This document shows positions 2,721 through 42,300 of a stretch of 64,000 bases of DNA, one piece after another. Under the pieces are notes generated by a model. It was not told where the DNA came from, did no database searches, and saw nothing but the letters and a program-made list of their open reading frames with translations. Source of the DNA: Branchiostoma floridae (lineage: Eukaryota; Chordata; Leptocardii; Amphioxiformes; Branchiostomatidae); contig NC_049984.1 in assembly GCF_000003815.2 (NCBI RefSeq), forward strand, positions 15,460,765-15,524,764, in the 5' to 3' direction. The translations under genes were made by a program, and so were the position numbers. The number at the start of each line of letters is the position of its first letter. Positions within the stretch are counted from its first letter, which is position 1.

Positions 2721-2726
2721 GTGTTT

Positions 2727-3380
2727 ATGAACTGGTTCGATGTACTTACATTGTTTTCTGTGTTGTTTTTTTTAGATTCGGGAAGAGCACAATGCGATGA
2801 GACATACAGGTCCCCGGCGGGGAGGATAGAATCGCCGGGGTACCCTGGCGACTATCCCCCGAGAGTTGACTACACGTGGTGCGTCGATGTAGAGGGAGCT
2901 ACAGGTACGTACAAAAACACAGAGGAAGAGAGAGAGAGACTGACTGCCTGACTCTGGGGAATATACAGGAATAGGGGGAAAGAGACGCATCGCCAGACAG
3001 ACAAATAAATATAATAAATGGAGGGGGTACTCGGCGGATGAGGACGAAAAAAAAATGTCATAAGCTGCCATCCTTACAATAGCAAAAAATTATAAGCATT
3101 ATAATCACATCGACTCTGATTATCATTGCAGGCATAGATGTCACTTTTCTGGGTGAGTTTCACTTGGAAATCAACGAGGATAATGACGGGACATTATCGT
3201 GTAAGGATGCCTTGGAAATAGGAGAGGGAAACGTCCCGTTCCTGGAAGGTTCCACCATCGGCATCTTCTGTGGAAACAGCACCCCGCCAGACCAGAGGAT
3301 TGACATGAAGCAGATGTGGGTCAACATGTACTCAGACAGGAATGTGGAAATGTCAGGATTCCGACTGGTATACAGATCAG
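2727..3380 (+). CDS. N-terminal exons: possible signal peptide and CUB domain 1
   Basis: Exon A ends at 2904 (ACAG|GTACGT) and exon B spans 3132-3380; the junction falls inside a glycine codon. The domain begins at Gln-Cys-Asp and has the four CUB cysteines: [15 protein letters not shown] and IFCG. The start is ambiguous. ATG 2727 gives [21 protein letters not shown], a good signal peptide with cleavage before Gln, but its Kozak context is weak. TTTTTTTTAG at 2766-2775 is an equally good acceptor and would open a phase-1 exon at 2776, with the signal peptide then coming from an unseen upstream exon. CUB domains bind proteins or carbohydrates outside the cell. Confidence 0.75.
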
Positions 3381-15300: not shown

Positions 15301-18300
15301 TTACAGCTGCCCTGATGAAATTGGTACCGTGGATCCTGTAGCTAGCTGTACTGAGGGGTTAAAAACCATTATCGAGAGCGACGAACGCTGTGGAAAGATC
15401 ATGGAAGACTTCCAGGCTTGTCACGATGCCGTTGCCCCTGAACCCTACTTTATTGCCTGTGTCTACGATGTCTGCGAGTACCAAGGCAGTTTGGAATTCC
15501 TCTGCCAAAACCTGGAGGCCTACGTGCAAGCATGCTCTGACAACGGGATAGACTTGGGCGAATGGAGAACACCAACTATATGTCGTAAGTTGACATAGTT
15601 AACAGAAAGGCTTAGGATGTTCTGTATCTTTCAGCTTGTACGTCTATCATGTCACCATTGCAAGAGGTCGCCTGATTGATTCCAATTCTTTTCGTTTTAT
15701 CCATCAGCGCTGACATGTCCAATAAACAGTCACTACACAACCTGTGCAAGTGCCTGTCCGGCTACCTGCACCGACGTGGCGGCACCAAACCAGTGCAACC
15801 ATCCTTGTAAGGAGGCCTGTGAATGTGACCTCGGCTTTGTCCTTAGCGGTGAAGTCTGCGTTCCACAGGAGCAGTGTGGTTGTCTGAAGGACGGCATCTA
15901 CTACCCGGTGAGTTATCCCTTTTTTGTTAAATCGCCTGTTACAGAGTAAGCATTGAATGGTCTCTTGCGAGATCTCTGTACAATTATCGGTCCTTTTTGT
16001 GGTAAGAATCGCTGACCGAGTGCAGAAGATATTGTTAGAGTTACAGCTGATAGAGTACGGAGACATCTGGGCGAGTTGACGATGCCAGAACATGTGCTTT
16101 TTTGTCTTGCAGTTGGGAGCCGAATGGAGCGAGGCCAACGGTCAGACTTGTAGCTGTCGTGGACAGAATGATATCAGCTGTCAACAAGTGGTCTGCGAAG
16201 ATGGCTTCTTCTGGAACCTGGAAGACGGCACCTGGGACTGTCGCTGCTTACCTGACAGAGATTGTGATGGTGGTGGGTGCTACTTTTAGACTTCTTTGCA
16301 AAAGTTCAGACCTTGATCCTCTGATCTATCTCTTGCAGTTGTAAGCAGTGACGAGATGCCCAACTTTTGCTTTCTTCCTTCCTCTCATGCAATAGAACGT
16401 GGCCCAGTCGAAGCCATTTGCGTCAGCTGGGGAGATCCTCACTACATCACCTTTGATGGAAAGAACATGAATTTCATGGGCGCATGCACCTACATTCTCA
16501 GCAAGGCCAGTCGACAGAATGACCAACTTCCAGCCTTTGAGATTCAGGCTACCAACGACAGAAGAGGCTCCGACCGTGTATCTTACACAGATAGCGCACT
16601 CATCAACATCTATCAGCATACTGTGATCTTGGGACAAGGGCGCATTGTGACGGTAAGTACTCTTACACATCGCATTTGGTACTTCTTTTCTCTTGGTAAG
16701 GTCTCTGTTTCTTAGGAAGACCGTGTTGTTTACTTGGCTAAATAAAGTTCCCCCCTCTCTTGGTCTCTGCAGCTGAACGGCCTGCAGGTCACTCCTCCAG
16801 TCAACTTGGCACAAGGCATCAACATACAAATGAGTGGACCCAACGTCGTGCTCAGCACTACCTTTGGACTCAGGGTGTCCTTCGACGGAAACCATCGTCT
16901 AGAAGTCGTGGTACCACCAACCTACTTTAACACTACACAAGGTATTTGTGGCAACTTCAATGGAGACCAAAGCGATGACACGCTCAAGTCGGACGGAAGC
17001 GTGGCTATCGATGCCAACGACTGGGGCAATAGCTGGAAGACCAACACAAGGTGAGTATTGAGCTCCTCATTTGGGAGGTACGATGCCTTCGCGTCTGTAG
17101 GGCAGAGTATGTAGATAAGTTTAGAGAAGTGTCTCCTTGCGTCTCTGCAGCAGCGGGAACGTAGGCTATGGCCTCGCTGAGCGCTAGACGAAATCGACCA
17201 ATCAATTCTTCTTATGTACTAATAAAAGTTGGGTTGATATATTCCCTCACGTCGTGACCATTGTGTTCCAGCTGTCCTGACGAGGATCAAATCGTCACGC
17301 CTGACTGTGAGCCAGGGCTACAAACCATCATCGAGAGCAACGAACGGTGCGGCAAGATCATGGAAGACTTCCAGGCTTGTCACAGCTGGGTTGATCCACA
17401 AGCCTACTATGAAGCCTGCGTCTTCGACGTCTGCGAGTACCAAGGCAGTCTGGAAATGCTCTGTCAGACCTTGGAGGCCTACGTGCAAGCATGTGCCGAA
17501 CAGGGACTAGACTTGGGCGATTGGAGAACACCAACAATATGTCGTAAGTAGACAAAGTGGACACTTTAATTTGTTATCCTTTGTAACTTTTACGTTTTCG
17601 TCCATCATGTCACCATTGCTAGACGTCGATAGATTGAAATACGATTCTCTTTCCTTTATCCCTCAGCGCTGACATGTCCAGTAAACAGCCACTACACCAC
17701 CTGCGCGAGTGCCTGTCCCGCTACCTGCACCGACGTGGCGGCACCAAACCAGTGCAACCATCCTTGTAAGGAGGCGTGTGAATGTGACCTTGGCTTTGTC
17801 CTTAGCGGTGAAGTCTGCGTTCCACAGGAGCAGTGTGGTTGTCTGAAGGACGGCATCTACTACCCGGTGAGTTATCCCTTTTTTGTTAAATCGCCTGTTA
17901 GAGAGTAAGCATTGAATGGTCTCTTGCGAGATCTCTGTACAATTATCGGTCCTTTTTGTGGTAAGAATCGCTGACCGAGTGCAGAAGGTATTGTTAGAGT
18001 TACAGCTGATAGAGTACGGAAAAATCTGGGCGAGTTGACGATGCCAGAACATGTGCTTTTGTCTTGCAGTTGGGCGCCGAATGGAGCGAGGCCAACGGTC
18101 AGACTTGTAGCTGTCGGGGACAGAATGATATCAGCTGTCAACAAGTGGTCTGCGAAGATGGCTTCTTCTGGAACTTGGAAGACGGCACCTGGGACTGTCG
18201 CTGCTTACCTGACAGAGATTGTGATGGTGGTGGGTGCTACTTTTAGACTTCTTTGCAAAAGTTTAGACCTTGATCCTCTGATCTATCTGTTGCAGTTGTA

Positions 18301-21300
18301 ATCAGTGACGAGATGCCCAACTTTTGCTTTCTTCCTTCCTCTCGTGCAATAGAACGTGGCCCAGTCGAAGCCATTTGCGTCAGCTGGGGCGATCCTCACT
18401 ACATCACCTTTGACGGAATGAACATGAATTTCATGGGCGCATGCACCTACATTCTCAGCAAGGCCAGCCGACAGAACGACCAACTTCCAGCCTTTGAGAT
18501 TCAGGCTACCAACGACAGAAGAGGCTCCGACCGTGTATCTTACACAGATAGCGCACTCATCAACATCTATCAGCATACTGTGATCTTGGGACAAGGGCGC
18601 ATTGTGACGGTAAGTACTCTTACACATCGCATTTGGCACTTCTTTTCTCTTGGTAAGGTCTCTGTTTCTTAGGAAGACCGTGTTGTTTACTTGGCTGAAT
18701 AAAGGTTCCCCCTCTCTTCGTCTCTGCAGCTGAACGGCCTGCAGGTCACTCCTCCGGTCAACTTGGCACAAGGCATCAACATACAAATGAGTGGACCCAA
18801 CGTCGTGCTCAGCACTACCTTTGGACTCAGGGTGTCCTTCGACGGAAACCATCGTCTAGAAGTCGTGGTACCACCAACCTACTTCAACACTACACAGGGC
18901 ATTTGTGGCAACTTCAACGGCGACAAAGCCGATGACATGCTCAAGTCGGACGGAATCATGGCTATCGATGCCAACGAGTGGGGCAATAGCTGGAAGACCA
19001 ACACAAGGTAAGCATTGCGCTCCTCATTTTGGAGGTACGATGCCGTCGCGTCTGTAGGGCAGAGTATGTAGATAAGTTTAGAGAAGTGTCTCCTTGCGTC
19101 TCTGCAGCAGCAGGCTCGATGAGCGCTAGACGAAATCGAACAATCATATCTTTGTATGTACATGTACGAAAGTTGGGTTGATATATTCTCACGTCGTGAC
19201 CATTGTGTTCCAGCTGTCCTGACGAGGTTCAAATCGTCACGCCTGACTGTGAGCCAGGGCTACAAACCATCATCGAAAGCAACGAACGGTGCGGCAAGAT
19301 CATGGAAGACTTCCAGGCTTGTCACAGCTGGGTTGATCCACAAGCCTACTATGAAGCCTGCGTCTTCGACGTCTGCGAGTACCAAGGCAGTCTGGAAATG
19401 CTCTGTCAGACCTTGGAGGCCTACGTGCAAGCATGTGCCGAACAGGGACTAGACTTGGGCGATTGGAGAACACCAACAATATGTCGTAAGTAGACAAAGT
19501 GGACACTTTAATTTGTTATCCTTTGTAACTTTTACGTTTTCGTCCATCATGTCACCATTGCTAGACGTCGATAGATTGAAATACGATTCTCTTTCCTTTA
19601 TCCCTCAGCGCTGACATGTCCAGTAAACAGCCACTACACCACCTGCGCGAGTGCCTGTCCCGCTACCTGCACCGACGTGGCGGCACCAAACCAGTGCAAC
19701 CATCCTTGTAAGGAGGCGTGTGAATGTGACCTCGGCTTTGTCCTTAGCGGTGAAGTCTGCGTTCCACAGGAGCAGTGTGGTTGTCTGAAGGACGGCATCT
19801 ACTACCCGGTGAGTTATCCCTTTTTTGTTAAATCGCCTGTTAGAGAGTAAGCATTGAATGGTCTCTTGCGAGATCTCTGTACAATTATCGGTCCTTTTTG
19901 TGGTAAGAATCGCTGACCGAGTGCAGAAGATATTGTTAGAGTTACAGCTGATAGAGTACGGAAAAATCTGGGCGAGTTGACGATGCCAGAACATGTGCTT
20001 TTGTCTTGCAGTTGGGCGCCGAATGGAGCGAGGCCAACGGTCAGACTTGTAGCTGTCGGGGACAGAATGATATCAGCTGTCAACAAGTGGTCTGCGAAGA
20101 TGGCTTCTTCTGGAACTTGGAAGACGGCACCTGGGACTGTCGCTGCTTACCTGACAGAGATTGTGATGGTGGTGGGTGCTACTTTTAGACTTCCTTGCAA
20201 AAGTTCAGACCTTGATCCTCTGATCTATCTGTTGCAGTTGTAATCAGTGACGAGATGCCCAACTTTTGCTTTCTTCCTTCCTCTCATGCAATAGAACGTG
20301 GCCCAGTCGAAGCCATTTGCGTCAGCTGGGGCGATCCTCACTACATCACCTTTGACGGAAAGAACATGAATTTCATGGGCGCATGCACCTACATTCTCAG
20401 CAAGGCCAGCCGACAGAACGACCAACTTCCAGCCTTTGAGATTCAGGCTACCAACGACAGAAGAGGCTCCGACCGTGTATCTTACACAGATAGCGCACTC
20501 ATCAACATCTATCAGCATACTGTGATCTTGGGACAAGGGCGCATTGTGACGGTAAGTACTCTTACACATCGCATTTGGCACTTCTTTTCTCTTGGTAAGG
20601 TCTCTGTTTCTTAGGAAGACCGTGTTGTTTACTTGGCTAAATAAAGTTCCCCCCTCTCTTGGTCTCTGCAGCTGAACGGCCTGCAGGTCACTCCTCCGGT
20701 CAACTTGGCACAAGGCATCAACATACAATTGAGTGGACCCAACGTCGTGCTCAGCACTACCTTTGGACTCAGGGTGTCCTTCGACGGAAACCATCGTCTA
20801 GAAGTCGTGGTACCACCAACCTACTTCAACACTACACAGGGCATTTGTGGCAACTTCAACGGCGACAAAGCCGATGACATGCTCAAGTCGGACGGAATCA
20901 TGGCTATCGATGCCAACGAGTGGGGCAATAGTTGGAAGACCAACACAAGGTAAGCATTGCGCTCCTCATTTTGGAGGTACGATGCCGTCGCGTCTGTAGG
21001 GCAGAGTATGTAGATAAGTTTAGAGAAGTGTCTCCTTGCGTCTCTGCAGCAGCAGGCTCGATGAGCGCTAGACGAAATCGACCAATCAATTCTTTGTATG
21101 TACATGTACGAAAGTTGGGTTGATATATTCTCACGTCGTGACCATTGTGTTCCAGCTGTCCTGACGAGGTTCAAATCGTCACGCCTGACTGTGAGCCAGG
21201 GCTACAAACCATCATCGAGAGCAACGAACGGTGCGGCAAGATCATGGAAGACTTCCAGGCTTGTCACAGCTGGGTTGATCCACAAGCCTACTATGAAGCC

Positions 21301-24300
21301 TGCGTCTTCGACGTCTGCGAGTACCAAGGCAGTCTGGAAATGCTCTGTCAGACCTTGGAGGCCTACGTGCAAGCATGTGCCGAACAGGGACTAGACTTGG
21401 GCGATTGGAGAACACCAACAATATGTCGTAAGTAGACAAAGTGGACACTTTAATTTGTTATCCTTTGTAACTTTTACGTTTTCGTCCATCATGTCACCAT
21501 TGCTAGACGTCGATAGATTGAAATACGATTCTCTTTCCTTTATCCCTCAGCGCTGACATGTCCAGTAAACAGCCACTACACCACCTGCGCGAGTGCCTGT
21601 CCCGCTACCTGCACCGACGTGGCGGCACCAAACCAGTGCAACCATCCTTGTAAGGAGGCGTGTGAATGTGACCTCGGCTTTGTCCTTAGCGGTGAAGTCT
21701 GCGTTCCACAGGAGCAGTGTGGTTGTCTGAAGGACGGCATCTACTACCCGGTGAGTTATCCCTTTTTTGTTAAATCGCCTGTTAGAGAGTAAGCATTGAA
21801 TGGTCTCTTGCGAGATCTCTGTACAATTATCGGTCCTTTTTGTGGTAAGAATCGCTGACCGAGTGCAGAAGATATTGTCAGAGTTACAGCTGATAGAGTA
21901 CGGAAAAATCTGGGCGAGTTGACGATGCCAGAACATGTGCTTTTGTCCTGCAGTTGAGCGCCGAATGGAGCGAGGCCAACGGTCAGACTTGTAGCTGTCG
22001 GGGACAGAATGATATCAGCTGTCAACAAGTGGTCTGCGAAGATGGCTTCTTCTGGAACTTGGAAGACGGCACCTGGGACTGTCGCTGCTTACCTGACAGA
22101 GATTGTGATGGTGGTGGGTGCTACTTTTAGACTTCTTTGCAAAAGTTCAGACCTTGATCCTCTGATATATGTGTTGCAGTTGTAATCAGTGACGAGATGC
22201 CCAACTTTTGCTTTCTTCCTTCCTCTCATGCAATAGAACGTGGCCCAGTCGAAGCCATTTGCGTCAGCTGGGGCGATCCTCACTACATCACCTTTGACGG
22301 AAAGAACATGAATTTCATGGGCGCATGCACCTACATTCTCAGCAAGGCCAGCCGACAGAACGACCAACTTCCAGCCTTTGAGATTCAGGCTACCAACGAC
22401 AGAAGAGGCTCCGACCGTGTATCTTACACAGATAGCGCACTCATCAACATCTATCAGCATACTGTGATCTTGGGACAAGGGCGCATTGTGACGGTAAGTA
22501 CTCTTACACATCGCATTTGGCACTTCTTTTCTCTTGGTAAGGTCTCTGTTTCTTAGGAAGACCGTGTTGTTTACTTGGCTAAATAAAGTTCCCCCCTCTC
22601 TTGGTCTCTGCAGCTGAACGGCCTGCAGGTCACTCCTCCGGTCAACTTGGCACAAGGCATCAACATACAATTGAGTGGACCCAACGTCGTGCTCAGCACT
22701 ACCTTTGGACTCAGGGTGTCCTTCGACGGAAACCATCGTCTAGAAGTCGTGGTACCACCAACCTACTTCAACACTACACAGGGCATTTGTGGCAACTTCA
22801 ACGGCGACAAAGCCGATGACATGCTCAAGTCGGACGGAATCATGGCTATCGATGCCAACGAGTGGGGCAATAGCTGGAAGACCAACACAAGGTAAGCATT
22901 GCGCTCCTCATTTTGGAGGTACGATGCCGTCGCGTCTGTAGGGCAGAGTATGTAGATAAGTTTAGAGAAGTGTCTCCTTGCGTCTCTGCAGCAGCAGGCT
23001 CGATGAGCGCTAGACGAAATCGACCAATCAATTCTTTGTATGTACATGTACGAAAGCTGGGTTGATATATTCTCACGTCGTGACCATTGTGTTCCAGCTG
23101 TCCTAACGAGGTTCAAATCGTCACGCCTGACTGTGAGCCAGGGCTACAAACCATCATCGAGAGCAACGAACGGTGCGGCAAGATCATGGAAGACTTCCAG
23201 GCTTGTCACAGCTGGGTTGATCCACAAGCCTACTATGAAGCCTGCGTCTTCGACGTCTGCGAGTACCAAGGCAGTCTGGAAATGCTCTGTCAGACCTTGG
23301 AGGCCTACGTGCAAGCATGTGCCGAACAGGGACTAGACTTGGGCGATTGGAGAACACCAACAATATGTCGTAAGTAGACAAAGTGGACACTTTAATTTGT
23401 TATCCTTTGTAACTTTTACGTTTTCGTCCATCATGTCACCATTGCTAGACGTCGATAGATTGAAATACGATTCTCTTTCCTTTATCCCTCAGCGCTGACA
23501 TGTCCAGTAAACAGCCACTACACCACCTGCGCGAGTGCCTGTCCCGCTACCTGCACCGACGTGGCGGCACCAAACCAGTGCAACCATCCTTGTAAGGAGG
23601 CGTGTGAATGTGACCTCGGCTTTGTCCTTAGCGGTGAAGTCTGCGTTCCACAGGAGCAGTGTGGTTGTCTGAAGGACGGCATCTACTACCCGGTGAGTTA
23701 TCCCTTTTTTGTTAAATCGCCTGTTAGAGAGTAAGCATTGAATGGTCTCTTGCGAGATCTCTGTACAATTATCGGTCCTTTTTGTGGTAAGAATCGCTGA
23801 CCGAGTGCAGAAGATATTGTTAGAGTTACAGCTGATAGAGTACGGAAAAATCTGGGCGAGTTGACGATGCCAGAACATGTGCTTTTGTCTTGCAGTTGGG
23901 CGCCGAATGGAGCGAGGCCAACGGTCAGACTTGTAGCTGTCGGGGACAGAATGATATCAGCTGTCAACAAGTGGTCTGCGAAGATGGCTTCTTCTGGAAC
24001 TTGGAAGACGGCACCTGGGACTGTCGCTGCTTACCTGACAGAGATTGTGATGGTGGTGGGTGCTACTTTTAGACTTCTTTGCAAAAGTTCAGACCTTGAT
24101 CCTCTGATCTATCTGTTGCAGTTGTAATCAGTGACGAGATGCCCAACTTTTGCTTTCATCCTTCCTCTCATGCAATAGAACGTGGCCCAGTCGAAGCCAT
24201 TTGCGTCAGCTGGGGCGATCCTCACTACATCACCTTTGACGGAAAGAACATGAATTTCATGGGCGCATGCACCTACATTCTCAGCAAGGCCAGCCGACAG

Positions 24301-27300
24301 AACGACCAACTTCCAGCCTTTGAGATTCAGGCTACCAACGACAGAAGAGGCTCCGACCGTGTATCTTACACAGATAGCGCACTCATCAACATCTATCAGC
24401 ATACTGTGATCTTGGGACAAGGGCGCATTGTGACGGTAAGTACTCTTACACATCGCATTTGGCACTTCTTTTCTCTTGGTAAGGTCTCTGTTTCTTAGGA
24501 AGACCGTGTTGTTTACTTGGCTAAATAAAGTTCCCCCCTCTCTTGGTCTCTGCAGCTGAACGGCCTGCAGGTCACTCCTCCGGTCAACTTGGCACAAGGC
24601 ATCAACATACAATTGAGTGGACCCAACGTCGTGCTTAGCACTACCTTTGGACTCAGGGTGTCCTTCGACGGAAACCATCGTCTAGAAGTCGTGGTACCAC
24701 CAACCTACTTCAACACTACACAGGGCATTTGTGGCAACTTCAACGGCGACAAAGCCGATGACATGCTCAAGTCGGACGGAATCATGGCTATCGATGCCAA
24801 CGAGTGGGGCAATAGCTGGAAGACCAACACAAGGTAAGCATTGCGCTCCTCATTTTGGAGGTACGATGCCGTCGCGTCTGTAGGGCAGAGTATGTAGATA
24901 AGTTTAGAGAAGTGTCTCCTTGCGTCTCTGCAGCAGCAGGCTCGATGAGCGCTAGACGAAATCGACCAATCAATTCTTTGTATGTACATGTACGAAAGTT
25001 GGGTTGATATATTCTCACGTCGTGACCATTGTGTTCCAGCTGTCCTGACGAGGTTCAAATCGTCACGCCTGACTGTGAGCCAGGGCTACAAACCATCATC
25101 GAGAGCAACGAACGGTGCGGCAAGATCATGGAAGACTTCCAGGCTTGTCACAGCTGGGTTGATCCACAAGCCTACTATGAAGCCTGCGTCTTCGACGTCT
25201 GCGAGTACCAAGGCAGTCTGGAAATGCTCTGTCAGACCTTGGAGGCCTACGTGCAAGCATGTGCCGAACAGGGACTAGACTTGGGCGATTGGAGAACACC
25301 AACAATATGTCGTAAGTAGACAAAGTGGACACTTTAATTTGTTATCCTTTGTAACTTTTACGTTTTCGTCCATCATGTCACCATTGCTAGACGTCGATAG
25401 ATTGAAATACGATTCTCTTTCCTTTATCCCTCAGCGCTGACATGTCCAGTAAACAGCCACTACACCACCTGCGCGAGTGCCTGTCCCGCTACCTGCACCG
25501 ACGTGGCGGCACCAAACCAGTGCAACCATCCTTGTAAGGAGGCGTGTGAATGTGACCTCGGCTTTGTCCTTAGCGGTGAAGTCTGCGTTCCACAGGAGCA
25601 GTGTGGTTGTCTGAAGGACGGCATCTACTACCCGGTGAGTTATCCCTTTTTTGTTAAATCGCCTGTTAGAGAGTAAGCATTGAATGGTCTCTTGCGAGAT
25701 CTCTGTACAATTATCGGTCCTTTTTGTGGTAAGAATCGCTGACCGAGTGCAGAAGATATTGTTAGAGTTACAGCTGATAGAGTACGGAAAAATCTGGGCG
25801 AGTTGACGATGCCAGAACATGTGCTTTTGTCTTGCAGTTGGGCGCCGAATGGAGCGAGGCCAACGGTCAGACTTGTAGCTGTCGGGGACAGAATGATATC
25901 AGCTGTCAACAAGTGGTCTGCGAAGATGGCTTCTTCTGGAACTTGGAAGACGGCACCTGGGACTGTCGCTGCTTACCTGACAGAGATTGTGATGGTGGTG
26001 GGTGCTACTTTTAGACTTCTTTGCAAAAGTTCAGACCTTGATCCTCTGATCTATCTGTTGCAGTTGTAATCAGTGACGAGATGCCCAACTTTTGCTTTCT
26101 TCCTTCCTCTCATGCAATAGAACGTGGCCCAGTCGAAGCCATTTGCGTCAGCTGGGGCGATCCTCACTACATCACCTTTGACGGAAAGAACATGAATTTC
26201 ATGGGCGCATGCACCTACATTCTCAGCAAGGCCAGCCGACAGAACGACCAACTTCCAGCCTTTGAGATTCAGGCTACCAACGACAGAAGAGGCTCCGACC
26301 GTGTATCTTACACAGATAGCGCACTCATCAACATCTATCAGCATACTGTGATCTTGGGACAAGGGCGCATTGTGACGGTAAGTACTCTTACACATCGCAT
26401 TTGGCACTTCTTTTCTCTTGGTAAGGTCTCTGTTTCTTAGGAAGACCGTGTTGTTTACTTGGCTAAATAAAGTTCCCCCCTCTCTTGGTCTCTGCAGCTG
26501 AACGGCCTGCAGGTCACTCCTCCGGTCAACTTGGCACAAGGCATCAACATACAATTGAGTGGACCCAACGTCGTGCTCAGCACTACCTTTGGACTCAGGG
26601 TGTCCTTCGACGGAAACCATCGTCTAGAAGTCGTGGTACCACCAACCTACTTCAACACTACACAGGGCATTTGTGGCAACTTCAACGGCGACAAAGCCGA
26701 TGACATGCTCAAGTCGGACGGAATCATGGCTATCGATGCCAACGAGTGGGGCAATAGTTGGAAGACCAACACAAGGTAAGCATTGCGCTCCTCATTTTGG
26801 AGGTACGATGCCGTCGCGTCTGTAGGGCAGAGTATGTAGATAAGTTTAGAGAAGTGTCTCCTTGCGTCTCTGCAGCAGCAGGCTCGATGAGCGCTAGACG
26901 AAATCGACCAATCAATTCTTTGTATGTACATGTACGAAAGTTGGGTTGATATATTCTCACGTCGTGACCATTGTGTTCCAGCTGTCCTGACGAGGTTCAA
27001 ATCGTCACGCCTGACTGTGAGCCAGGGCTACAAACCATCATCGAGAGCAACGAACGGTGCGGCAAGATCATGGAAGACTTCCAGGCTTGTCACAGCTGGG
27101 TTGATCCACAAGCCTACTATGAAGCCTGTGTCTTCGACGTCTGCGAGTACCAAGGCAGTCTGGAAATGCTCTGTCAGACCTTGGAGGCCTACGTGCAAGC
27201 ATGTGCCGAACAGGGACTAGACTTGGGCGATTGGAGAACACCAACAATATGTCGTAAGTAGACAAAGTGGACACTTTAATTTGTTATCCTTTGTAACTTT

Positions 27301-30300: not shown

Positions 30301-33300
30301 CTTGGAAAGGTCTTTGTTTCTTAGGAAGACCGTGTTGTTTACTTGGCTAAATAAAGTTCCCCCCTCTCTTGGTCTCTGCAGCTGAACGGCCTGCAGGTCA
30401 CTCCTCCGGTCAACTTGGCACAAGGCATCAACATACAATTGAGTGGACCCAACGTCGTGCTCAGCACTACCTTTGGACTCAGGGTGTCCTTCGACGGAAA
30501 CCATCGTCTAGAAGTCGTGGTACCACCAACCTACTTCAACACTACACAGGGCATTTGTGGCAACTTCAACGGCGACAAAGCCGATGACATGCTCAAGTCG
30601 GACGGAATCATGGCTATCGATGCCAACGAGTGGGGCAATAGCTGGAAGACCAACACAAGGTAAGCATTGCGCTCCTCATTTTGGAGGTACGATGCCGTCG
30701 CGTCTGTAGGGCAGAGTATGTAGATAAGTTTAGAGAAGTGTCTCCTTGCGTCTCTGCAGCAGCAGGCTCGATGAGCGCTGGACGAAATCGACCAATCAAT
30801 TCTTTGTATGTACATGTACAAAAGCTGGGTTGATATATTCTCACGTCGTGACCATTGTGTTCCAGCTGTCCTGACGAGGTTCAAATCGTCACGCCTGACT
30901 GTGAGCCAGGGCTACAAACCATCATCGAGAGCAACGAACGGTGCGGCAAGATCATGGAAGACTTCCAGGCTTGTCACAGCTGGGTTGATCCACAAGCCTA
31001 CTATGAAGCCTGTGTCTTCGACGTCTGCGAGTACCAAGGCAGTCTGGAAATGCTCTGTCAGACCTTGGAGGCCTACGTGCAAGCATGTGCCGAACAGGGA
31101 CTAGACTTGGGCGATTGGAGAACACCAACAATATGTCGTAAGTAGACAAAGTGGACACTTTAATTTGTTATCCTTTGTAACTTTTACGTTTTCGTCCATC
31201 ATGTCACCATTGCTAGACGTCGATAGATTGAAATACGATTCTCTTTCCTTTATCCCTCAGCGCTGACATGTCCAGTAAACAGCCACTACACCACCTGCGC
31301 GAGTGCCTGTCCCGCTACCTGCACCGACGTGGCGGCACCAAACCAGTGCAACCATCCTTGTAAGGAGGCGTGTGAATGTGACCTCGGCTTTGTCCTTAGC
31401 GGTGAAGTCTGCGTTCCACAGGAGCAGTGTGGTTGTCTGAAGGACGGCATCTACTACCCGGTGAGTTATCCCTTTTTTGTTAAATCGCCTGTTAGAGAGT
31501 AAGCATTGAATGGTCTCTTGCGAGATCTCTGTACAATTATCGGTCCTTTTTGTGGTAAGAATCGCTGACCGAGTGCAGAAGATATTGTCAGAGTTACAGC
31601 TGATAGAGTACGGAAAAATCTGGGCGAGTTGACGATGCCAGAACATGTGCTTTTGTCCTGCAGTTGAGCGCCGAATGGAGCGAGGCCAACGGTCAGACTT
31701 GTAGCTGTCGGGGACAGAATGATATCAGCTGTCAACAAGTGGTCTGCGAAGATGGCTTCTTCTGGAACTTGGAAGACGGCACCTGGGACTGTCGCTGCTT
31801 ACCTGACAGAGATTGTGATGGTGGTGGGTGCTACTTTTAGACTTCTTTGCAAAAGTTCAGACCTTGATCCTCTGATATATGTGTTGCAGTTGTAATCAGT
31901 GACGAGATGCCCAACTTTTGCTTTCTTCCTTCCTCTCATGCAATAGAACGTGGCCCAGTCGAAGCCATTTGCGTCAGCTGGGGCGATCCTCACTACATCA
32001 CCTTTGACGGAAAGAACATGAATTTCATGGGCGCATGCACCTACATTCTCAGCAAGGCCAGCCGACAGAACGACCAACTTCCAGCCTTTGAGATTCAGGC
32101 TACCAACGACAGAAGAGGCTCCGACCGTGTATCTTACACAGATAGCGCACTCATCAACATCTATCAGCATACTGTGATCTTGGGACAAGGGCGCATTGTG
32201 ACGGTAAGTACTCTTACACATCGCATTTGGCACTTCTTTTCTCTTGGTAAGGTCTCTGTTTCTTAGGAAGACCGTGTTGTTTACTTGGCTAAATAAAGTT
32301 CCCCCCTCTCTTGGTCTCTGCAGCTGAACGGCCTGCAGGTCACTCCTCCGGTCAACTTGGCACAAGGCATCAACATACAATTGAGTGGACCCAACGTCGT
32401 GCTCAGCACTACCTTTGGACTCAGGGTGTCCTTCGACGGAAACCATCGTCTAGAAGTCGTGGTACCACCAACCTACTTCAACACTACACAGGGCATTTGT
32501 GGCAACTTCAACGGCGACAAAGCCGATGACATGCTCAAGTCGGACGGAATCATGGCTATCGATGCCAACGAGTGGGGCAATAGCTGGAAGACCAACACAA
32601 GGTAAGCATTGCGCTCCTCATTTTGGAGGTACGATGCCGTCGCGTCTGTAGGGCAGAGTATGTAGATAAGTTTAGAGAAGTGTCTCCTTGCGTCTCTGCA
32701 GCAGCAGGCTCGATGAGCGCTAGACGAAATCGACCAATCAATTCTTTGTATGTACATGTACGAAAGCTGGGTTGATATATTCTCACGTCGTGACCATTGT
32801 GTTCCAGCTGTCCTGACGAGGTTCAAATCGTCACGCCTGACTGTGAGCCAGGGCTACAAACCATCATCGAGAGCAACGAACGGTGCGGCAAGATCATGGA
32901 AGACTTCCAGGCTTGTCACAGCTGGGTTGATCCACAAGCCTACTATGAAGCCTGCGTCTTCGACGTCTGCGAGTACCAAGGCAGTCTGGAAATGCTCTGT
33001 CAGACCTTGGAGGCCTACGTGCAAGCATGTGCCGAACAGGGACTAGACTTGGGCGATTGGAGAACACCAACAATATGTCGTAAGTAGACAAAGTGGACAC
33101 TTTAATTTGTTATCCTTTGTAACTTTTACGTTTTCGTCCATCATGTCACCATTGCTAGACGTCGATAGATTGAAATACGATTCTTTTTCCTTTATCCCTC
33201 AGCGCTGACATGTCCAGTAAACAGCCACTACACCACCTGCGCGAGTGCCTGTCCCGCTACCTGCACCGACGTGGCGGCACCAAACCAGTGCAACCATCCT

Positions 33301-36300
33301 TGTAAGGAGGCGTGTGAATGTGACCTCGGCTTTGTCCTTAGCGGTGAAGTCTGCGTTCCACAGGAGCAGTGTGGTTGTCTGAAGGACGGCATCTACTACC
33401 CGGTGAGTTATCCCTTTTTTGTTAAATCGCCTGTTAGAGAGTAAGCATTGAATGGTCTCTTGCGAGATCTCTGTACAATTATCGGTCCTTTTTGTGGTAA
33501 GAATCGCTGACCGAGTGCAGAAGATATTGTCAGAGTTACAGCTGATAGAGTACGGAAAAATCTGGGCGAGTTGACGATGCCAGAACATGTGCTTTTGTCC
33601 TGCAGTTGGGCGCCGAATGGAGCGAGGCCAACGGTCAGACTTGTAGCTGTCGGGGACAGAATGATATCAGCTGTCAACAAGTGGTCTGCGAAGATGGCTT
33701 CTTCTGGAACTTGGAAGACGGCACCTGGGACTGTCGCTGCTTACCTGACAGAGATTGTGATGGTGGTGGGTGCTACTTTTAGACTTCTTTGCAAAAGTTC
33801 AGACCTTGATCCTCTGATATATGTGTTGCAGTTGTAATCAGTGACGAGATGCCCAACTTTTGCTTTCTTCCTTCCTCTCATGCAATAGAACGTGGCCCAG
33901 TCGAAGCCATTTGCGTCAGCTGGGGCGATCCTCACTACATCACCTTTGACGGAAAGAACATGAATTTCATGGGCGCATGCACCTACATTCTCAGCAAGGC
34001 CAGCCGACAGAACGACCAACTTCCAGCCTTTGAGATTCAGGCTACCAACGACAGAAGAGGCTCCGACCGTGTATCTTACACAGATAGCGCACTCATCAAC
34101 ATCTATCAGCATACTGTGATCTTGGGACAAGGGCGCATTGTGACGGTAAGTACTCTTACACATCGCATTTGGCACTTCTTTTCTCTTGGTAAGGTCTCTG
34201 TTTCTTAGGAAGACCGTGTTGTTTACTTGGCTAAATAAAGTTCCCCCCTCTCTTGGTCTCTGCAGCTGAACGGCCTGCAGGTCACTCCTCCGGTCAACTT
34301 GGCACAAGGCATCAACATACAATTGAGTGGACCCAACGTCGTGCTCAGCACTACCTTTGGACTCAGGGTGTCCTTCGACGGAAACCATCGTCTAGAAGTC
34401 GTGGTACCACCAACCTACTTCAACACTACACAGGGCATTTGTGGCAACTTCAACGGCGACAAAGCCGATGACATGCTCAAGTCGGACGGAATCATGGCTA
34501 TCGATGCCAACGAGTGGGGCAATAGTTGGAAGACCAACACAAGGTAAGCATTGCGCTCCTCATTTTGGAGGTACGATGCCGTCGCGTCTGTAGGGCAGAG
34601 TATGTAGATAAGTTTAGAGAAGTGTCTCCTTGCGTCTCTGCAGCAGCAGGCTCGATGAGCGCTAGACGAAATCGACCAATCAATTCTTTGTATGTACATG
34701 TACGAAAGCTGGGTTGATATATTCTCACGTCGTGACCATTGTGTTCCAGCTGTCCTGACGAGGTTCAAATCGTCACGCCTGACTGTGAGCCAGGGCTACA
34801 AACCATCATCGAGAGCAACGAACGGTGCGGCAAGATCATGGAAGACTTCCAGGCTTGTCACAGCTGGGTTGATCCACAAGCCTACTATGAAGCCTGCGTC
34901 TTCGACGTCTGCGAGTACCAAGGCAGTCTGGAAATGCTCTGTCAGACCTTGGAGGCCTACGTGCAAGCATGTGCCGAACAGGGACTAGACTTGGGCGATT
35001 GGAGAACACCAACAATATGTCGTAAGTAGACAAAGTGGACACTTTAATTTGTTATCCTTTGTAACTTTTACGTTTTCGTCCATCATGTCACCATTGCTAG
35101 ACGTCGATAGATTGAAATACGATTCTTTTTCCTTTATCCCTCAGCGCTGACATGTCCAGTAAACAGCCACTACACCACCTGCGCGAGTGCCTGTCCCGCT
35201 ACCTGCACCGACGTGGCGGCACCAAACCAGTGCAACCATCCTTGTAAGGAGGCGTGTGAATGTGACCTCGGCTTTGTCCTTAGCGGTGAAGTCTGCGTTC
35301 CACAGGAGCAGTGTGGTTGTCTGAAGGACGGCATCTACTACCCGGTGAGTTATCCCTTTTTTGTTAAATCGCACTGTTAGAGAGTAAGCATTGAATGGTC
35401 TCTTGCGAGATCTCTGTACAATTATCGGTCCTTTTTGTGGTAAGAATCGCTGACCGAGTGCAAAAGATATTGTTAGAGTTACAGCTGATAGAGTACGGAA
35501 AAATCTGGGCGAGTTGACGATGCCAGAACATGTGCTTTTGTCTTGCAGTTGGGCGCCGAATGGAGCGAGGCCAACGGTCAGACTTGTAGCTGTCGGGGAC
35601 AGAATGATATCAGCTGTCAACAAGTGGTCTGCGAAGATGGCTTCTTCTGGAACTTGGAAGACGGCACCTGGGACTGTCGCTGCTTACCTGACAGAGATTG
35701 TGATGGTGGTGGGTGCTACTTTTAGACTTCTTTGCAAACGTTCAGACCTTGATCCTCTGATATATGTGTTGCAGTTGTAATCAGTGACGAGATGCCCAAC
35801 TTTTGCTTTCTTCCTTCCTCTCATGCAATAGAACGTGGCCCAGTCGAAGCCATTTGCGTCAGCTGGGGCGATCCTCACTACATCACCTTTGACGGAAAGA
35901 ACATGAATTTCATGGGCGCATGCACCTACATTCTCAGCAAGGCCAGCCGACAGAACGACCAACTTCCAGCCTTTGAGATTCAGGCTACCAACGACAGAAG
36001 AGGCTCCGACCGTGTATCTTACACAGATAGCGCACTCATCAACATCTATCAGTATGCTGTGATCTTGGGACAAGGGCGCATTGTGACGGTAAGTACTCTT
36101 ACACATCGCATTTGGCACTTCTTTTCTCTTGGTAAGGTCTCTGTTTCTATTTAAGACTGTGTTGTTTACTTGGCTAAATAAAGTTCCCCCCTCTCTTGGT
36201 CTCTGCAGCTGAACGGCCTGCAGGTCACTCCTCCGGTCAACCTGGCGCAAGGCATCAACATACAATTGAGTGGACCCAACGTCGTGCTCAGCACTACCTT

Positions 36301-39300
36301 TGGACTCAGGGTGTCCTTCGACGGAAACCATCGTCTAGAAGTCGTGGTACCACCAACCTACTTCAACACTACACAGGGCATTTGTGGCAACTTCAACGGC
36401 GACAAAGCCGATGACATGCTCAAGTCGGACGGAATCATGGCTATCGATGCCAACGAGTGGGGCAATAGCTGGAAGACCAACACAAGGTAAGCATTGCGCT
36501 CCTCATTTTGGAGGTACGATGCCGTCGCGTCTGTAGGGCAGAGTATGTAGATAAGTTTAGAGAAGTGTCTCCTTGCGTCTCTGCAGCAGCAGGCTCGATG
36601 AGCGCTAGACGAAATCGACCAATCAATTCTTTGTATGTACATGTACGAAAGTTGGGTTGATATATTCTCACGTCGTGACCATTGTGTTCCAGCTGTCCTG
36701 ACGAGGTTCAAATCGTCACGCCTGACTGTGAGCCAGGGCTACAAACCATCATCGAGAGCAACGAACGGTGCGGCAAGATCATGGAAGACTTCCAGGCTTG
36801 TCACAGCTGGGTTGATCCACAAGCCTACTATGAAGCCTGCGTCTTCGACGTCTGCGAGTACCAAGGCAGTCTGGAAATGCTCTGTCAGACCTTGGAGGCC
36901 TACGTGCAAGCATGTGCCGAACAGGGACTAGACTTGGGCGATTGGAGAACACCAACAATATGTCGTAAGTAGACAAAGTGGACACTTTAATTTGTTATCC
37001 TTTGTAACTTTTACGTTTTCGTCCATCATGTCACCATTGCTAGACGTCGATAGATTGAAATACGATTCTCTTTCCTTTATCCCTCAGCGCTGACATGTCC
37101 AGTAAACAGCCACTACACCACCTGCGCGAGTGCCTGTCCCGCTACCTGCACCGACGTGGCGGCACCAAACCAGTGCAACCATCCTTGCAAGGAGGCGTGT
37201 GAATGTGACCTCGGCTTTGTCCTTAGCGGTGAAGTCTGCGTTCCACAGGAGCAGTGTGGTTGTCTGAAGGACGGCATCTACTACCCGGTGAGTTATCCCT
37301 TTTTTGTTAAATCGCCTGTTAGAGAGTAAGCATTGAATGGTCTCTTGCGAGATCTCTGTACAATTATCGGTCCTTTTTGTGGTAAGAATCACTGACCGAG
37401 TGCAGAAGATATTGTTAGAGTTACAGCTGATAGAGTACGGAAAAATCTGGGCGAGTTGACGATGCCAGAACATGTGCTTTTGTCTTGCAGTTGGGCGCCG
37501 AATGGAGCGAGGCCAACGGTCAGACTTGTAGCTGTCGGGGACAGAATGATATCAGCTGTCAACAAGTGGTCTGCGAAGATGGCTTCTTCTGGAACTTGGA
37601 AGACGGCACCTGGGACTGTCGCTGCTTACCTGACAGAGATTGTGATGGTGGTGGGTGCTACTTTTAGACTTCTTTGCAAAAGTTCAGACCTTGATCCTCT
37701 GATATATGTGTTGCAGTTGTAATCAGTGACGAGATGCCCAACTTTTGCTTTCTTCCTTCCTCTCATGCAATAGAACGTGGCCCAGTTGAAGCCATTTGCG
37801 TCAGCTGGGGCGATCCTCACTACATCACCTTTGACGGAAAGAACATGAATTTCATGGGCGCATGCACCTACATTCTCAGCAAGGCCAGCCGACAGAACGA
37901 CCAACTTCCAGCCTTTGAGATTCAGGCTACCAACGACAGAAGAGGCTCCGACCGTGTATCTTACACAGATAGCGCACTCATCAACATCTATCAGCATACT
38001 GTGATCTTGGGACAAGGGCGCATTGTGACGGTAAGTACTCTTACACATCGCATTTGGCACTTCTTTTCTCTTGGTAAGGTCTCTGTTTCTTAGGAAGACC
38101 GTGTTGTTTACTTGGCTAAATAAAGTTCCCCCCTCTCTTGGTCTCTGCAGCTGAACGGCCTGCAGGTCACTCCTCCGGTCAACTTGGCACAAGGCATCAA
38201 CATACAATTGAGTGGACCCAACGTCGTGCTCAGCACTACCTTTGGACTCAGGGTGTCCTTCGACGGAAACCATCGTCTAGAAGTCGTGGTACCACCAACC
38301 TACTTCAACACTACACAGGGCATTTGTGGCAACTTCAACGGCGACAAAGCCGATGACATGCTCAAGTCGGACGGAATCATGGCTATCGATGCCAACGACT
38401 GGGGCAATAGCTGGAAGACCAACACAAGGTAAGCATTGCGCTCCTCATTTTGGAGGTACGATGCCGTCGCGTCTGTAGGGCAGAGTATGTAGATAAGTTT
38501 AGAGAAGTGTCTCCTTGCGTCTCTGCAGCAGCAGGCTCGATGAGCGCTAGACGAAATCGACCAATCAATTCTTTGTATGTACATGTACGAAAGTTGGGTT
38601 GATATATTCTCACGTCGTGACCATTGTGTTCCAGCTGTCCTGACGAGGTTCAAATCGTCACGCCTGACTGTGAGCCAGGGCTACAAACCATCATCGAGAG
38701 CAACGAACGGTGCGGCAAGATCATGGAAGACTTCCAGGCTTGTCACAGCTGGGTTGATCCACAAGCCTACTATGAAGCCTGCGTCTTCGACGTCTGCGAG
38801 TACCAAGGCAGTCTGGAAATGCTCTGTCAGACCTTGGAGGCCTACGTGCAAGCATGTGCCGAACAGGGACTAGACTTGGGCGATTGGAGAACACCAACAA
38901 TATGTCGTAAGTAGACAAAGTGGACACTTTAATTTGTTATCCTTTGTAACTTTTACGTTTTCGTCCATCATGTCACCATTGCTAGACGTCGATAGATTGA
39001 AATACGATTCTCTTTCCTTTATCCCTCAGCGCTGACATGTCCAGTAAACAGCCACTGCACCACCTGCGCGAGTGCCTGTCCCGCTACCTGCACCGACGTG
39101 GCGGCACCAAACCAGTGCAACCATCCTTGTAAGGAGGCGTGTGAATGTGACCTCGGCTTTGTCCTTAGCGGTGAAGTCTGCGTTCCACAGGGGCAGTGTG
39201 GTTGTCTGAAGGACGGCATCTACTACCCGGTGAGTTATCCCTTTTTTGTTAAATCGCCTGTTAGAGAGTAAGCATTGAATGGTCTCTTGCGAGATCTCTG

Positions 39301-42300
39301 TACAATTATCGGTCCTTTTTGTGGTAAGAATCGCTGACCGAGTGCAGAAGATATTGTTAGAGTTACAGCTGATAGAGTACGGAAAAATCTGGGCGAGTTG
39401 ACGATGCCAGAACATGTGCTTTTGTCTTGCAGTTGGGCGCCGAATGGAGCGAGGCCAACGGTCAGACTTGTAGCTGTCGGGGACAGAATGATATCAGCTG
39501 TCAACAAGTAGTCTGCGAAGATGGCTTCTTCTGGAACTTGGAAGACGGCACCTGGGACTGTCGCTGCTTACCTGACAGAGATTGTGATGGTGGTGGGTGC
39601 TACTTTTAGACTTCTTTGCAAAAGTTCAGACCTTGATCCTCTGATCTATCTGTTGCAGTTGTAATCAGTGACGAGATGCCCAACTTTTGCTTTCTTCCTT
39701 CCTCTCGTGCAATAGAACGTGGCCCAGTCGAAGCCATTTGCGTCAGCTGGGGCGATCCTCACTACATCACCTTTGACGGAAAGAACATGAATTTCATGGG
39801 CGCATGCACCTACATTCTCAGCAAGGCCAGCCGACAGAACGACCAACTTCCAGCCTTTGAGATTCAGGCTACCAACGACAGAAGAGGCTCCGACCGTGTA
39901 TCTTACACAGATAGCGCACTCATCAACATCTATCAGCATACTGTGATCTTGGGACAAGGGCGCATTGTGACGGTAAGTACTCTTACACATCGCATTTGGC
40001 ACTTCTTTTCTCTTGGTAAGGTCTCTGTTTCTTAGGAAGACCGTGTTGTTTACTTGGCTAAATAAAGTTCCCCCCTCTCGTGGTCTCTGCAGCTGAACGG
40101 CCTGCAGGTCACTCCTCCGGTCAACTTGGCACAAGGCATCAACATACAATTGAGTGGACCCAACGTCGTGCTCAGCACTACCTTTGGACTCAGGGTGTCC
40201 TTCGACGGAAACCATCGTCTAGAAGTCGTGGTACCACCAACCTACTTCAACACTACACAGGGCATTTGTGGCAACTTCAACGGCGACAAAGCCGATGACA
40301 TGCTCAAGTCGGACGGAATCATGGCTATCGATGCCAACGAATGGGGCAATAGCTGGAAGACCAACACAAGGTAAGCATTGCGCTCCACCTTTTGGAGGTA
40401 CGATGCCGTCGCGTCTGTAGGGCAGAGTATGTAGATAAGTTTAGAGAAGTGTCTCCTTGCGTCTCTGCAGCAGCAGGCTCGATGAGCGCTAGACGAAATC
40501 GACCAATCAATTCTTTGTATGTACATGTACGAAAGTTGGGTTGATATATTCTCACGTCGTGACCATTGTGTTCCAGCTGTCCTGACGAGGTTCAAATCGT
40601 CACGCCTGACTGTGAGCCAGGGCTACAAACCATCATCGAGAGCAACGAACGGTGCGGCAAGATCATGGAAGACTTCCAGGCTTGTCACAGCTGGGTTGAT
40701 CCACAAGCCTACTATGAAGCCTGCGTCTTCGACGTCTGCGAGTACCAAGGCAGTCTGGAAATGCTCTGTCAGACCTTGGAGGCCTACGTGCAAGCATGTG
40801 CCGAACAGGGACTAGACTTGGGCAATTGGAGAACACCAACAGTATGCCGTAAGTAGACAAAGTTGACGCCACGGCTTTACATGTTCTGTTATCTTCTACG
40901 TTTTCCGTCCATCATGTCGCCATTGCAAGAGGTCAATTGATTGATTCCGATTTTCTTCGCTTTATCCATCAGCGCTGGCATGTCCAATAAACAGTCACTA
41001 CACCAGCTGTGCAAGTGCCTGTCCGGCTACCTGCACCGATGTGGCGGCACCAAACCAGTGTAATCATCCTTGTAAGGAGGCCTGTGAATGTGACCTTGGC
41101 TTCGTCCTTAGCGGTGAAGTCTGCGTTCCGCAGGAGCAGTGTGGTTGTCTGAAGGACGGCATCTACTACCCGGTCAGTTCTCCCTATGTTTCTTTAATCG
41201 CTTTTTCAATCGAGAGTATGCAATGCGTGGTCTTCTGCAAGACCTCTGCAAATTCACTGCATCTTTTGAGGTAGAAATCGCTAGCCGATGGATAAGAAAA
41301 CAGATATAGTTACAGCTGCTAAAAAGAGTGACGAGGTGTCTGGGCGAGTTACCGATGACAGAACATGTGTCTTTGTCTTGCAGTTGGGCGCCGAATGGAG
41401 CGAGGCCAACGGTCAGACTTGTAGCTGTCGTGGACAGAATGATATCAGCTGTCAACAAGTGGTCTGCGAAGATGGCTTCTTCTGGAACTTGGAAGACGGC
41501 ACCTGGGACTGTCGCTGTCTACCTGATAGAGATTGTGATGGTGGTGGGTACTAATTTTAGACTTCTTTGCTAGATTTCAAATCTAAAGTATTAACCCACT
41601 CTATTGTAGTTGTAATCCGTGATGAGATGTCTTACTCTTTGTATCTCCTTTCGTCTCATGCGACAGAGCGTGGCCCAGTCGAAGCCATTTGCGTCAGCTG
41701 GGGCGATCCTCACTACCTCACCTTTGACGGAAAGAACTTGAACTACCAGGGTGCGTGCACCTACATCCTCAGCAAGGCCAGTCGACAGAACGACCAACTT
41801 CCAGCCTTTGAGATTCAGGCTACCAACGACAGAAGAGGCTCCGACCGTGTATCTTACACAGACAGCGCACGCATCAACATCTATCAACATAGTGTGGTCT
41901 TGGGACAAGGGCGCGCCGTGACGGTAAGTAATCCTGCACATCGCCTTTAGAACTTCTTTCACCTTCAAAGAGATCCGTTTATTGGAGAGCCTGTGCTAAT
42001 TACTTGGTCAACTTAAGGTTTCCCCTTCTCTTGGTCTCTGCAGCTGAACGGCCTGCAGGTCACTCCTCCGGTCAACTTGGCGCAAGGCATCAACATACAA
42101 TTGAGTGGACCCAATGTCGTGCTCAGCACTACCTTTGGACTCAGAGTGTCCTTCGACGGAAACCATCGCCTAGAAGTCGTGGTACCACCAACCTACTTCA
42201 ACACTACACAGGGCATCTGTGGCAACTTCAACGGCGACCAAACCGATGACATGCTCAAGTCGGACGGAAGCATGGCTATCGATGCCGTCGAGTGGGGCAA

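What the first reader, a model, noticed from the sequence alone, without database searches (positions are those of the whole stretch)
15908..40860. 25-kb array of near-identical 1,942-bp units, each one complete VWD-C8-TIL-TILa module
Introns are as conserved as exons across about 13 units, although introns should drift faster. This points to very recent amplification or ongoing homogenisation by unequal crossover or gene conversion. Each unit is phase-neutral, so the copy number of a 388-residue module could vary between alleles, giving surface proteins of different length.
Basis: partly seen in the sequence, partly recalled or inferred. Interest (0 to 1): 0.75.

Follow-up and report, generated by a model that had tools for sequence, protein, structure and literature searches.

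The report
Homogenised VWD-module array in one gene
One very large gene, probably of an animal, carries about a dozen almost identical copies, introns included, of a building block known from mucus and clotting proteins; the copies seem to have been exchanging sequence recently, and the protein's length might differ between individuals.

Summary
The array is real in this assembly. One predicted + strand gene (about 2.7-55.7 kb) holds 18 consecutive VWD-C8-TIL-TILa modules; 11 of them (M5-M15) are near-identical 1,942-bp units (one is 1,943), each five exons (389 codons) and five introns. The homogenised block spans about 15.76-40.85 kb. They match synonymous sites (0.95%), while nonsynonymous sites are four times lower (0.22%), so the copies are young and introns drift neutrally. 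Variants are mosaic: 40 of 91 informative site pairs fail the four-gamete test (simulated mean without recombination 1.0), favouring repeated exchange over a single burst. Flanking modules M1-M3, M17 and M18 fall to 59-87% protein identity. Predicted protein: CUB, five EGF, 18 D assemblies, CUB, membrane anchor, tail; all 18 modules keep the GDPH motif. The kind is known: human FCGBP has near-identical D assemblies, and LPA KIV-2 is an intron-bearing coding repeat. Allelic variation in unit number is plausible but untested, and a wrong unit count in the assembly is not excluded.

The parts
2727..55700 (+). predicted gene: signal-like N-terminus, CUB, 5 EGF, 18 VWD-C8-TIL-TILa modules, CUB, TM, tail; 103 exons, 8,270 codons including the N gap; 3' end uncertain because of the gap
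   Evidence: home-made splice/codon Viterbi model. Its GT-AG sites and lack of internal stops are built into the method, so they are not independent evidence; independent support is the full-length gap-free exon matches and the protein matches
2727..3380 (+). signal-like N-terminus and first CUB domain (exons 2727-2904, 3132-3380)
   Evidence: Pfam CUB E 6.8e-16; signal peptide judged by eye only
3729..6716 (+). five EGF-like domains, one exon each (3729, 4291, 4876, 5931, 6597)
   Evidence: Pfam EGF, 5 stretches, E 7.1e-36
8451..11356 (+). module M1, diverged (59% protein identity to M8)
   Evidence: Pfam VWD/C8/TIL
11855..14228 (+). module M2, diverged (79%)
14452..16272 (+). module M3 (82%); its TIL and TILa exons are already near array type
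15760..40850 (+). homogenised block, about 12.9 units of 1,942 bp (edges approximate)
   Evidence: identity to consensus in 100-bp steps; edge alignment
16396..18229 (+). module M4 (97.9% protein); patch of lower identity about 16,955-17,254
18353..39592 (+). core modules M5-M15 (11 units; VWD exon a starts 18353, 20295, 22237, 24179, 26121, 28063, 30005, 31947, 33889, 35832, 37774)
20295..20551 (+). example unit M6: VWD exon a, 257 nt, holds WGDPHY
20672..20949 (+). example unit M6: VWD exon b, 278 nt, holds CGNFNG
21156..21427 (+). example unit M6: C8 exon, 272 nt
21551..21750 (+). example unit M6: TIL exon, 200 nt
21954..22113 (+). example unit M6: TILa exon, 160 nt
   Evidence: TILa name from sub-threshold matches of M18 and M1
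39716..41543 (+). module M16 (98.7% protein); array-type up to the end of C8, then diverged
41667..43402 (+). module M17 (87%)
43516..50124 (+). module M18 (59%), split by a long C8-TIL intron 44,891-49,317
50583..50933 (+). second CUB domain
   Evidence: Pfam E 1.2e-13
53148..53204 (+). predicted transmembrane segment (19 residues, Kyte-Doolittle mean 2.18); the 7 windows above 1.6 in the model all overlap it
   Evidence: coordinates counted by hand from the ORF
53738..55700 (+). predicted tail rich in P, G, S and R, interrupted by 772 N (54,225-54,996); reading frame after the gap uncertain

Best explanation
The feature is an intragenic tandem array of D-assembly modules kept alike by concerted evolution. 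Units of 1,942 bp, each a whole module with its introns, have misaligned and exchanged sequence (unequal crossing over, gene conversion or both), so derived variants spread among units and old differences were lost inside the block but kept at its edges. Selection removes amino-acid changes, leaving introns and synonymous sites to vary alike. Because every core unit has the same exon lengths and 389 whole codons, gain or loss of a unit keeps the frame. The product is most likely a giant membrane-anchored surface protein whose stalk is a string of 18 D assemblies between CUB/EGF and CUB/TM parts. Shown: array, exon structure, neutral-rate equality, mosaic variants. Predicted from sequence: gene model, membrane anchor. 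Inferred from FCGBP: cleavage at each GDPH with fragments held by disulfides. Inferred only: adhesive or mucus-like function, and variation in unit number between alleles.
For: Core M5-M15: pS 0.95%, intron 0.93%, pN 0.22%; nonsynonymous 9 of 922 sites against intron 29 of 775, P 0.0002. 40 of 91 informative pairs are four-gamete incompatible; simulated trees without recombination gave mean 1.0, and 1 of 2,000 reached 40; pairs within 400 columns are less incompatible than under shuffled order, P 0.0034. Private variants are clustered in M11 and M14 (P 0.005, 0.016), not significantly in M5 (P 0.11), the three units tested, as conversion tracts would be. Some minor alleles equal the flanking modules (for example M5 at column 355 and M14 at 416, both as in M3 and M17), as if derived alleles had spread past a few hold-outs. 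Outside the core M3 differs from M8 by 27% in introns and 24% at synonymous sites, M17 by 38% and 21%. All 18 modules of the model keep C.SWGDPHY and CGNFN. The best-scoring solved structures are FCGBP.
Against: Neighbouring units are not clearly more alike than distant ones (Mantel r 0.26, P 0.065; shared minor alleles by lag, global P 0.82), so simple neighbour-to-neighbour unequal exchange is not demonstrated. Only 14 sites are informative, two of them (1920, 1924) perfectly linked, and the simulation assumes a constant-size coalescent and a set rate of repeat hits. One assembly, no reads, no second individual, no transcript. Introns are not uniform: the two flanking VWD exon a vary most (pi 1.82% and 1.48%), the C8-TIL intron least (0.27%). 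At the edge, M4 differs from M8 less in introns (2.1%) than at synonymous sites (4.9%), M16 the other way round (15.4%, 7.3%).
Confidence: 0.77

Rival explanations
1. Assembly artefact: the true array is shorter or longer, units having been falsely duplicated, collapsed or joined from two haplotypes.
For: The window holds a 772-N gap at 54,225 next to another repeat. Exact repeats reach 1,801 bp, and the longest lies exactly five units apart (21,304 and 31,014), with further five-unit matches of 947 and 900 bp, as a joined second haplotype might give. Intron changes are 14 transitions and 15 transversions, which does not speak for natural mutation.
Against: All 55 pairs among the 11 core units differ, by 4 to 24 positions. 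Exon differences are filtered by selection (9 synonymous and 9 nonsynonymous over 245 and 922 sites, P 0.006), 15 of 18 exon changes are transitions, and the core has one 1-base indel only; random sequencing error would not give this. Sharing at lag 5 is not above chance over the array (P 0.24).
Confidence: 0.13
2. One recent burst: a single unit was amplified quickly and copies have since only diverged, with no further exchange.
For: Low divergence; 33 of 47 biallelic variable sites are private to one unit.
Against: 40 of 91 informative site pairs are incompatible with any one tree; 1 of 2,000 simulated trees without recombination reached that. Flank-type alleles kept in single units need several founder types or later spread.
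Confidence: 0.1
3. Introns are conserved because they carry function (splicing or regulatory elements), not because copies are young.
For: The C8-TIL intron varies at only 1 of 123 positions in the core.
Against: Introns taken together vary like synonymous sites in the core, and in M3 and M17 differ from M8 by 27% and 38% of aligned columns.
Confidence: 0.02
4. The protein is a secreted gel or glue protein rather than a membrane-anchored receptor, the TM exon being mis-assigned.
For: D assemblies are best known in secreted mucins, VWF and FCGBP, and vWD-C8-TIL occurs in invertebrate glue proteins; the gene model is computed only.
Against: The 7 windows above the hydropathy cut-off in the 8,270-codon model all overlap one segment, after the second CUB and before the tail.
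Confidence: 0.2

Closest known systems
Human FCGBP (IgG Fc-binding protein)
   Same: Many tandem D assemblies, three blocks of three almost identical (studied segment at least 99% identical to D4, D7 and D10), GDPH motifs with a cysteine that tethers the first strand (PMC10880436, passages); FCGBP chain 8rde is the best PDB match of the unit, seven stretches.
   Different: The human repeat period is three assemblies, here one; here CUB and EGF domains and a predicted membrane anchor.
LPA kringle IV type 2 repeat
   Same: Coding tandem repeat with introns inside one gene; 5.5-kb units, two exons, little sequence variation, and flanking introns that diverge from those of the repeat (PMC4378929, start of abstract and passages).
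   Different: Kringle, not VWD; copy number there is known to range from 1 to over 40, here only suspected to vary.
Zonadhesin (mouse D3p cassettes; zebrafish zan blocks)
   Same: VWD expansion inside one gene for a protein with a TM domain; zebrafish ~5-kb blocks of phase-symmetric exons, possibly a population variant (PMC1325057, passages); mouse has 20 extra partial VWD domains of two exons each (PMC9275260, passages).
   Different: Zebrafish blocks are 85-87% identical; zonadhesin has MAM and mucin domains, and no MAM was found here in the parts scanned.
Macrostomum adhesive proteins ap1/ap2
   Same: Giant invertebrate adhesion protein (ap2) with vWD, C8 and TIL domains and long repeats that short reads fail to assemble (PMC8621496, passages).
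   Different: Its long repeats are other motifs (RP-1, RP-2), not described as D assemblies; secreted glue.

Membership tests
VWD D assembly (VWD-C8-TIL-E/TILa) | VWD, C8 and TIL domains in order | tested here: met
   Pfam on the core unit and on M1; ordered exon matches in all 18 modules
VWD D assembly (VWD-C8-TIL-E/TILa) | TILa/E domain after TIL | tested here: inconclusive
   M18 and M1 match PF12714 at 2.6e-4 and 3.2e-4, under the cut-off; core unit not listed
VWD D assembly (VWD-C8-TIL-E/TILa) | GDPH autocleavage motif with tethering cysteine (optional feature) | tested here: met
   18 of 18 modules in the model; cleavage itself not testable
FCGBP ortholog | no CUB/EGF/membrane anchor; Fc-binding N-terminal region (recalled) | tested here: not met
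   N-terminal region gives CUB and EGF in Pfam; TM predicted
Zonadhesin | MAM, mucin, then tandem VWD domains (criteria in PMC9275260) | tested here: not met
   No MAM in the N- and C-terminal parts scanned; synteny not tested
Intron-bearing coding copy-number repeat (LPA KIV-2 type) | tandem, frame-neutral, near-identical multi-exon units | tested here: met
Intron-bearing coding copy-number repeat (LPA KIV-2 type) | unit number differs between alleles | not testable with these tools
   one assembly, no reads
Concerted evolution | within-array sharing by exchange (mosaic variants) | tested here: met
   four-gamete and proximity tests
Concerted evolution | units more alike within than between species | not testable with these tools
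   the collections scanned hold prokaryotes and viruses and gave no relative

The most novel reading that the evidence does not exclude
The array is a length-hypervariable surface protein: unit number turns over fast enough that individuals carry different stalk lengths and combinations of module variants (for example the extra-cysteine modules M10 and M15), serving as a self/non-self or adhesion polymorphism in an invertebrate.
Probability: 0.12. Interest if true: 0.72.

Novelty: new member of a known kind. Interest (0 to 1): 0.4.

Why it matters
It is a clean natural test of how whole intron-bearing modules stay identical: the same gene holds both a homogenised block and decayed flanking copies, so exchange and selection can be separated within one locus. 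If unit number varies between individuals, it would be a VWD counterpart of LPA KIV-2, in which a giant surface protein changes length in steps of one whole D assembly.

Tried and rejected
Five-unit higher-order repeat or joined haplotypes: the longest exact repeats are five units apart, but sharing at lag 5 is not above permutation (P 0.24). Neighbour similarity: weak, P 0.065. Relatives in prokaryotes or viruses: none confirmed in genome contigs (33 pattern matches) or viral contigs (2); a single protein was the query, which reaches close relatives only. No NCBIfam match of the unit at E up to 0.001; no Rfam match at gathering scores; ARAGORN, bacterial code, none. A SEA domain before the TM segment was suspected from memory; Pfam listed none. 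Relatives of the unit elsewhere in the same genome could not be sought (genome search did not complete). The organism was not identified; that it is an animal is inferred from domains and introns. Structure prediction was not tried, because the spliced protein is not contiguous in the DNA.
Full report
What was checked. The window region 15-41 kb was compared with itself at offsets 200-5,999; 1,942 is the sharp maximum. BLAST of one unit and of its five exons placed the copies. A protein-level search and a home-made gene model placed the most diverged exons. There are 18 modules on the + strand, numbered M1-M18. M5-M15 are the near-identical core; M4 and M16 are near-identical over most of their length; M1-M3, M17 and M18 are diverged.

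Unit anatomy. The unit (example M6) has exons of 257, 278, 272, 200 and 160 nt, each bounded by AG and GT, in total 1,167 nt or 389 codons. Start phases printed for M1 and the start of M2 are 1, 0, 2, 1, 0 around the module, so any whole number of units keeps the frame. Pfam gives VWD, C8 and TIL; TILa rests on sub-threshold matches of the homologous exons of M18 and M1.

Exons against introns. In M5-M15, 18 of 1,167 exon positions and 29 of 775 ungapped intron positions vary. Exons are thus clearly more conserved (P 0.0024), contrary to the finding's wording. The 18 exon changes are 9 synonymous and 9 nonsynonymous. Per site the synonymous rate (9/245) equals the intron rate (29/775; P 1.0), and the nonsynonymous rate (9/922) is about a quarter. 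Pairwise means say the same: 0.95%, 0.93%, 0.22%. Introns are therefore at the neutral level of a young set of copies. Dropping any single unit leaves exon counts of 13-18 and intron counts of 21-29.

Edges. Against M8, M3 differs by 24% at synonymous sites, 12.5% at nonsynonymous sites and 27% in introns; M17 by 21%, 8.4% and 38%; M4 by 4.9%, 1.0% and 2.1%; M16 by 7.3%, 0.5% and 15.4% (raw proportions, dependent on the alignment). M4, with introns closer than synonymous sites, does not follow the rule of the other three. M1 and M18 have 59% protein identity to M8. Identity rises within the TIL exon of M3 and falls at the end of C8 of M16, so both edges lie near the same C8-TIL point of the unit. 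Decay at the edges with uniformity inside is what exchange among misaligned copies is expected to give (established reasoning, recalled).

Burst or exchange. Of 47 biallelic variable sites in the core, 14 are informative; 40 of their 91 pairs show all four combinations. In 2,000 simulated coalescent trees without recombination the mean was 1.0 and the largest 44; P 0.0005. Pairs within 400 columns (41 pairs) are less often incompatible than under shuffled order, P 0.0034. Two of the 14 sites are perfectly linked and count twice. M10 and M15, five units apart, share three variants in TIL-TILa including an extra cysteine; M6, M11 and M12 share others. Private variants are clustered in M11 and M14 but not significantly in M5, the three units tested. 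Exchange is thus supported; whether by crossover or conversion is open, since neighbour similarity is weak (P 0.065) and no lag stands out (global P 0.82 for lags 1-6).

Is it an assembly artefact? No two core units are the same in DNA (minimum 4 differences), though only 7 distinct module proteins occur among the 11. Exact repeats reach 1,801 bp. The exon changes are synonymous-rich and transition-rich, and the core has a single 1-base indel, which looks biological; intron changes, 14 transitions and 15 transversions, are less clear-cut. Unit count remains unproven.

The protein. The model reads, in order, a hydrophobic N-terminus, CUB, five EGF, 18 modules, CUB, a poorly modelled threonine/proline-rich stretch, one predicted TM segment and a proline/glycine/serine/arginine-rich tail broken by the 772-N gap. 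GT-AG sites and the absence of internal stops are imposed by the model and prove nothing alone; that the exons of M4-M16 match the M6 exons without gaps, nearly all over their full length, and that the modules read out at 389-395 residues, does support it. All 18 modules keep C.SWGDPHY and CGNFN; modules have 30 cysteines except M3, M10 and M15 with 31. In human FCGBP such motifs are cut between Asp and Pro and the pieces stay joined by a disulfide (PMC10880436, passages). By analogy this protein may be cut in 18 places while staying in one piece; this is inference.

Comparison. The unit's best solved relatives are FCGBP chains, then VWF and mucins, and last a luciferase (33 distinct sequences at E up to 0.001). 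Near-identical D assemblies in one gene are already known in human FCGBP, VWD expansions in zonadhesin, and an intron-bearing coding copy-number repeat in LPA. So the kind is known; the present case adds a long run with a single-module period and a CUB/EGF membrane setting. I do not claim that this architecture is unpublished: ten searches of one open-access library were made. Passages were read of five papers (PMC10880436, PMC1325057, PMC9275260, PMC4378929, PMC8621496); the others were seen only as titles and abstract beginnings.

Noticed in passing
M10 and M15 (TIL exon, 29319-29518 and 39030-39229), M3 (VWD exon a): These three modules carry a 31st cysteine (Tyr to Cys in M10 and M15), an odd number that could leave a free thiol for bonding between modules or chains.
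   Followed up: partly
5012-5420: 83-bp tandem repeat, 4.9 copies, in the intron between the third and fourth EGF exons of the model.
   Followed up: no
44308-44530: AGC/AGT-type trinucleotide repeat with a 47-bp higher-order period, in the VWD-C8 intron of M18.
   Followed up: no
54225-55577: 772-N gap beside a repeat with 63/126-bp periods that can code for Gly-Ser-Arg-Pro runs; reading frame across the gap is uncertain.
   Followed up: partly
63157-63684, minus strand: Tandem pair of a 260-bp AT-rich element holding a tRNA-like stretch with a B-box-like GGTTCGAAACC in one copy (motif recalled); ARAGORN called no tRNA. Possibly a tRNA-derived SINE.
   Followed up: partly
59026-59548 and 59141-59416: 46-bp tandem repeat, six copies, inside a large imperfect inverted repeat (73% identity).
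   Followed up: no
60577-60951: 65-bp tandem repeat, 5.7 copies, 93% matches, partly covered by an open minus-strand frame (60840-61067) with no Pfam family at its cut-off.
   Followed up: partly
47623-47729, 50982-51034, 62202-62279: Short self-complementary inverted repeats (77-89% identity), as in small non-autonomous DNA transposons (recalled).
   Followed up: no
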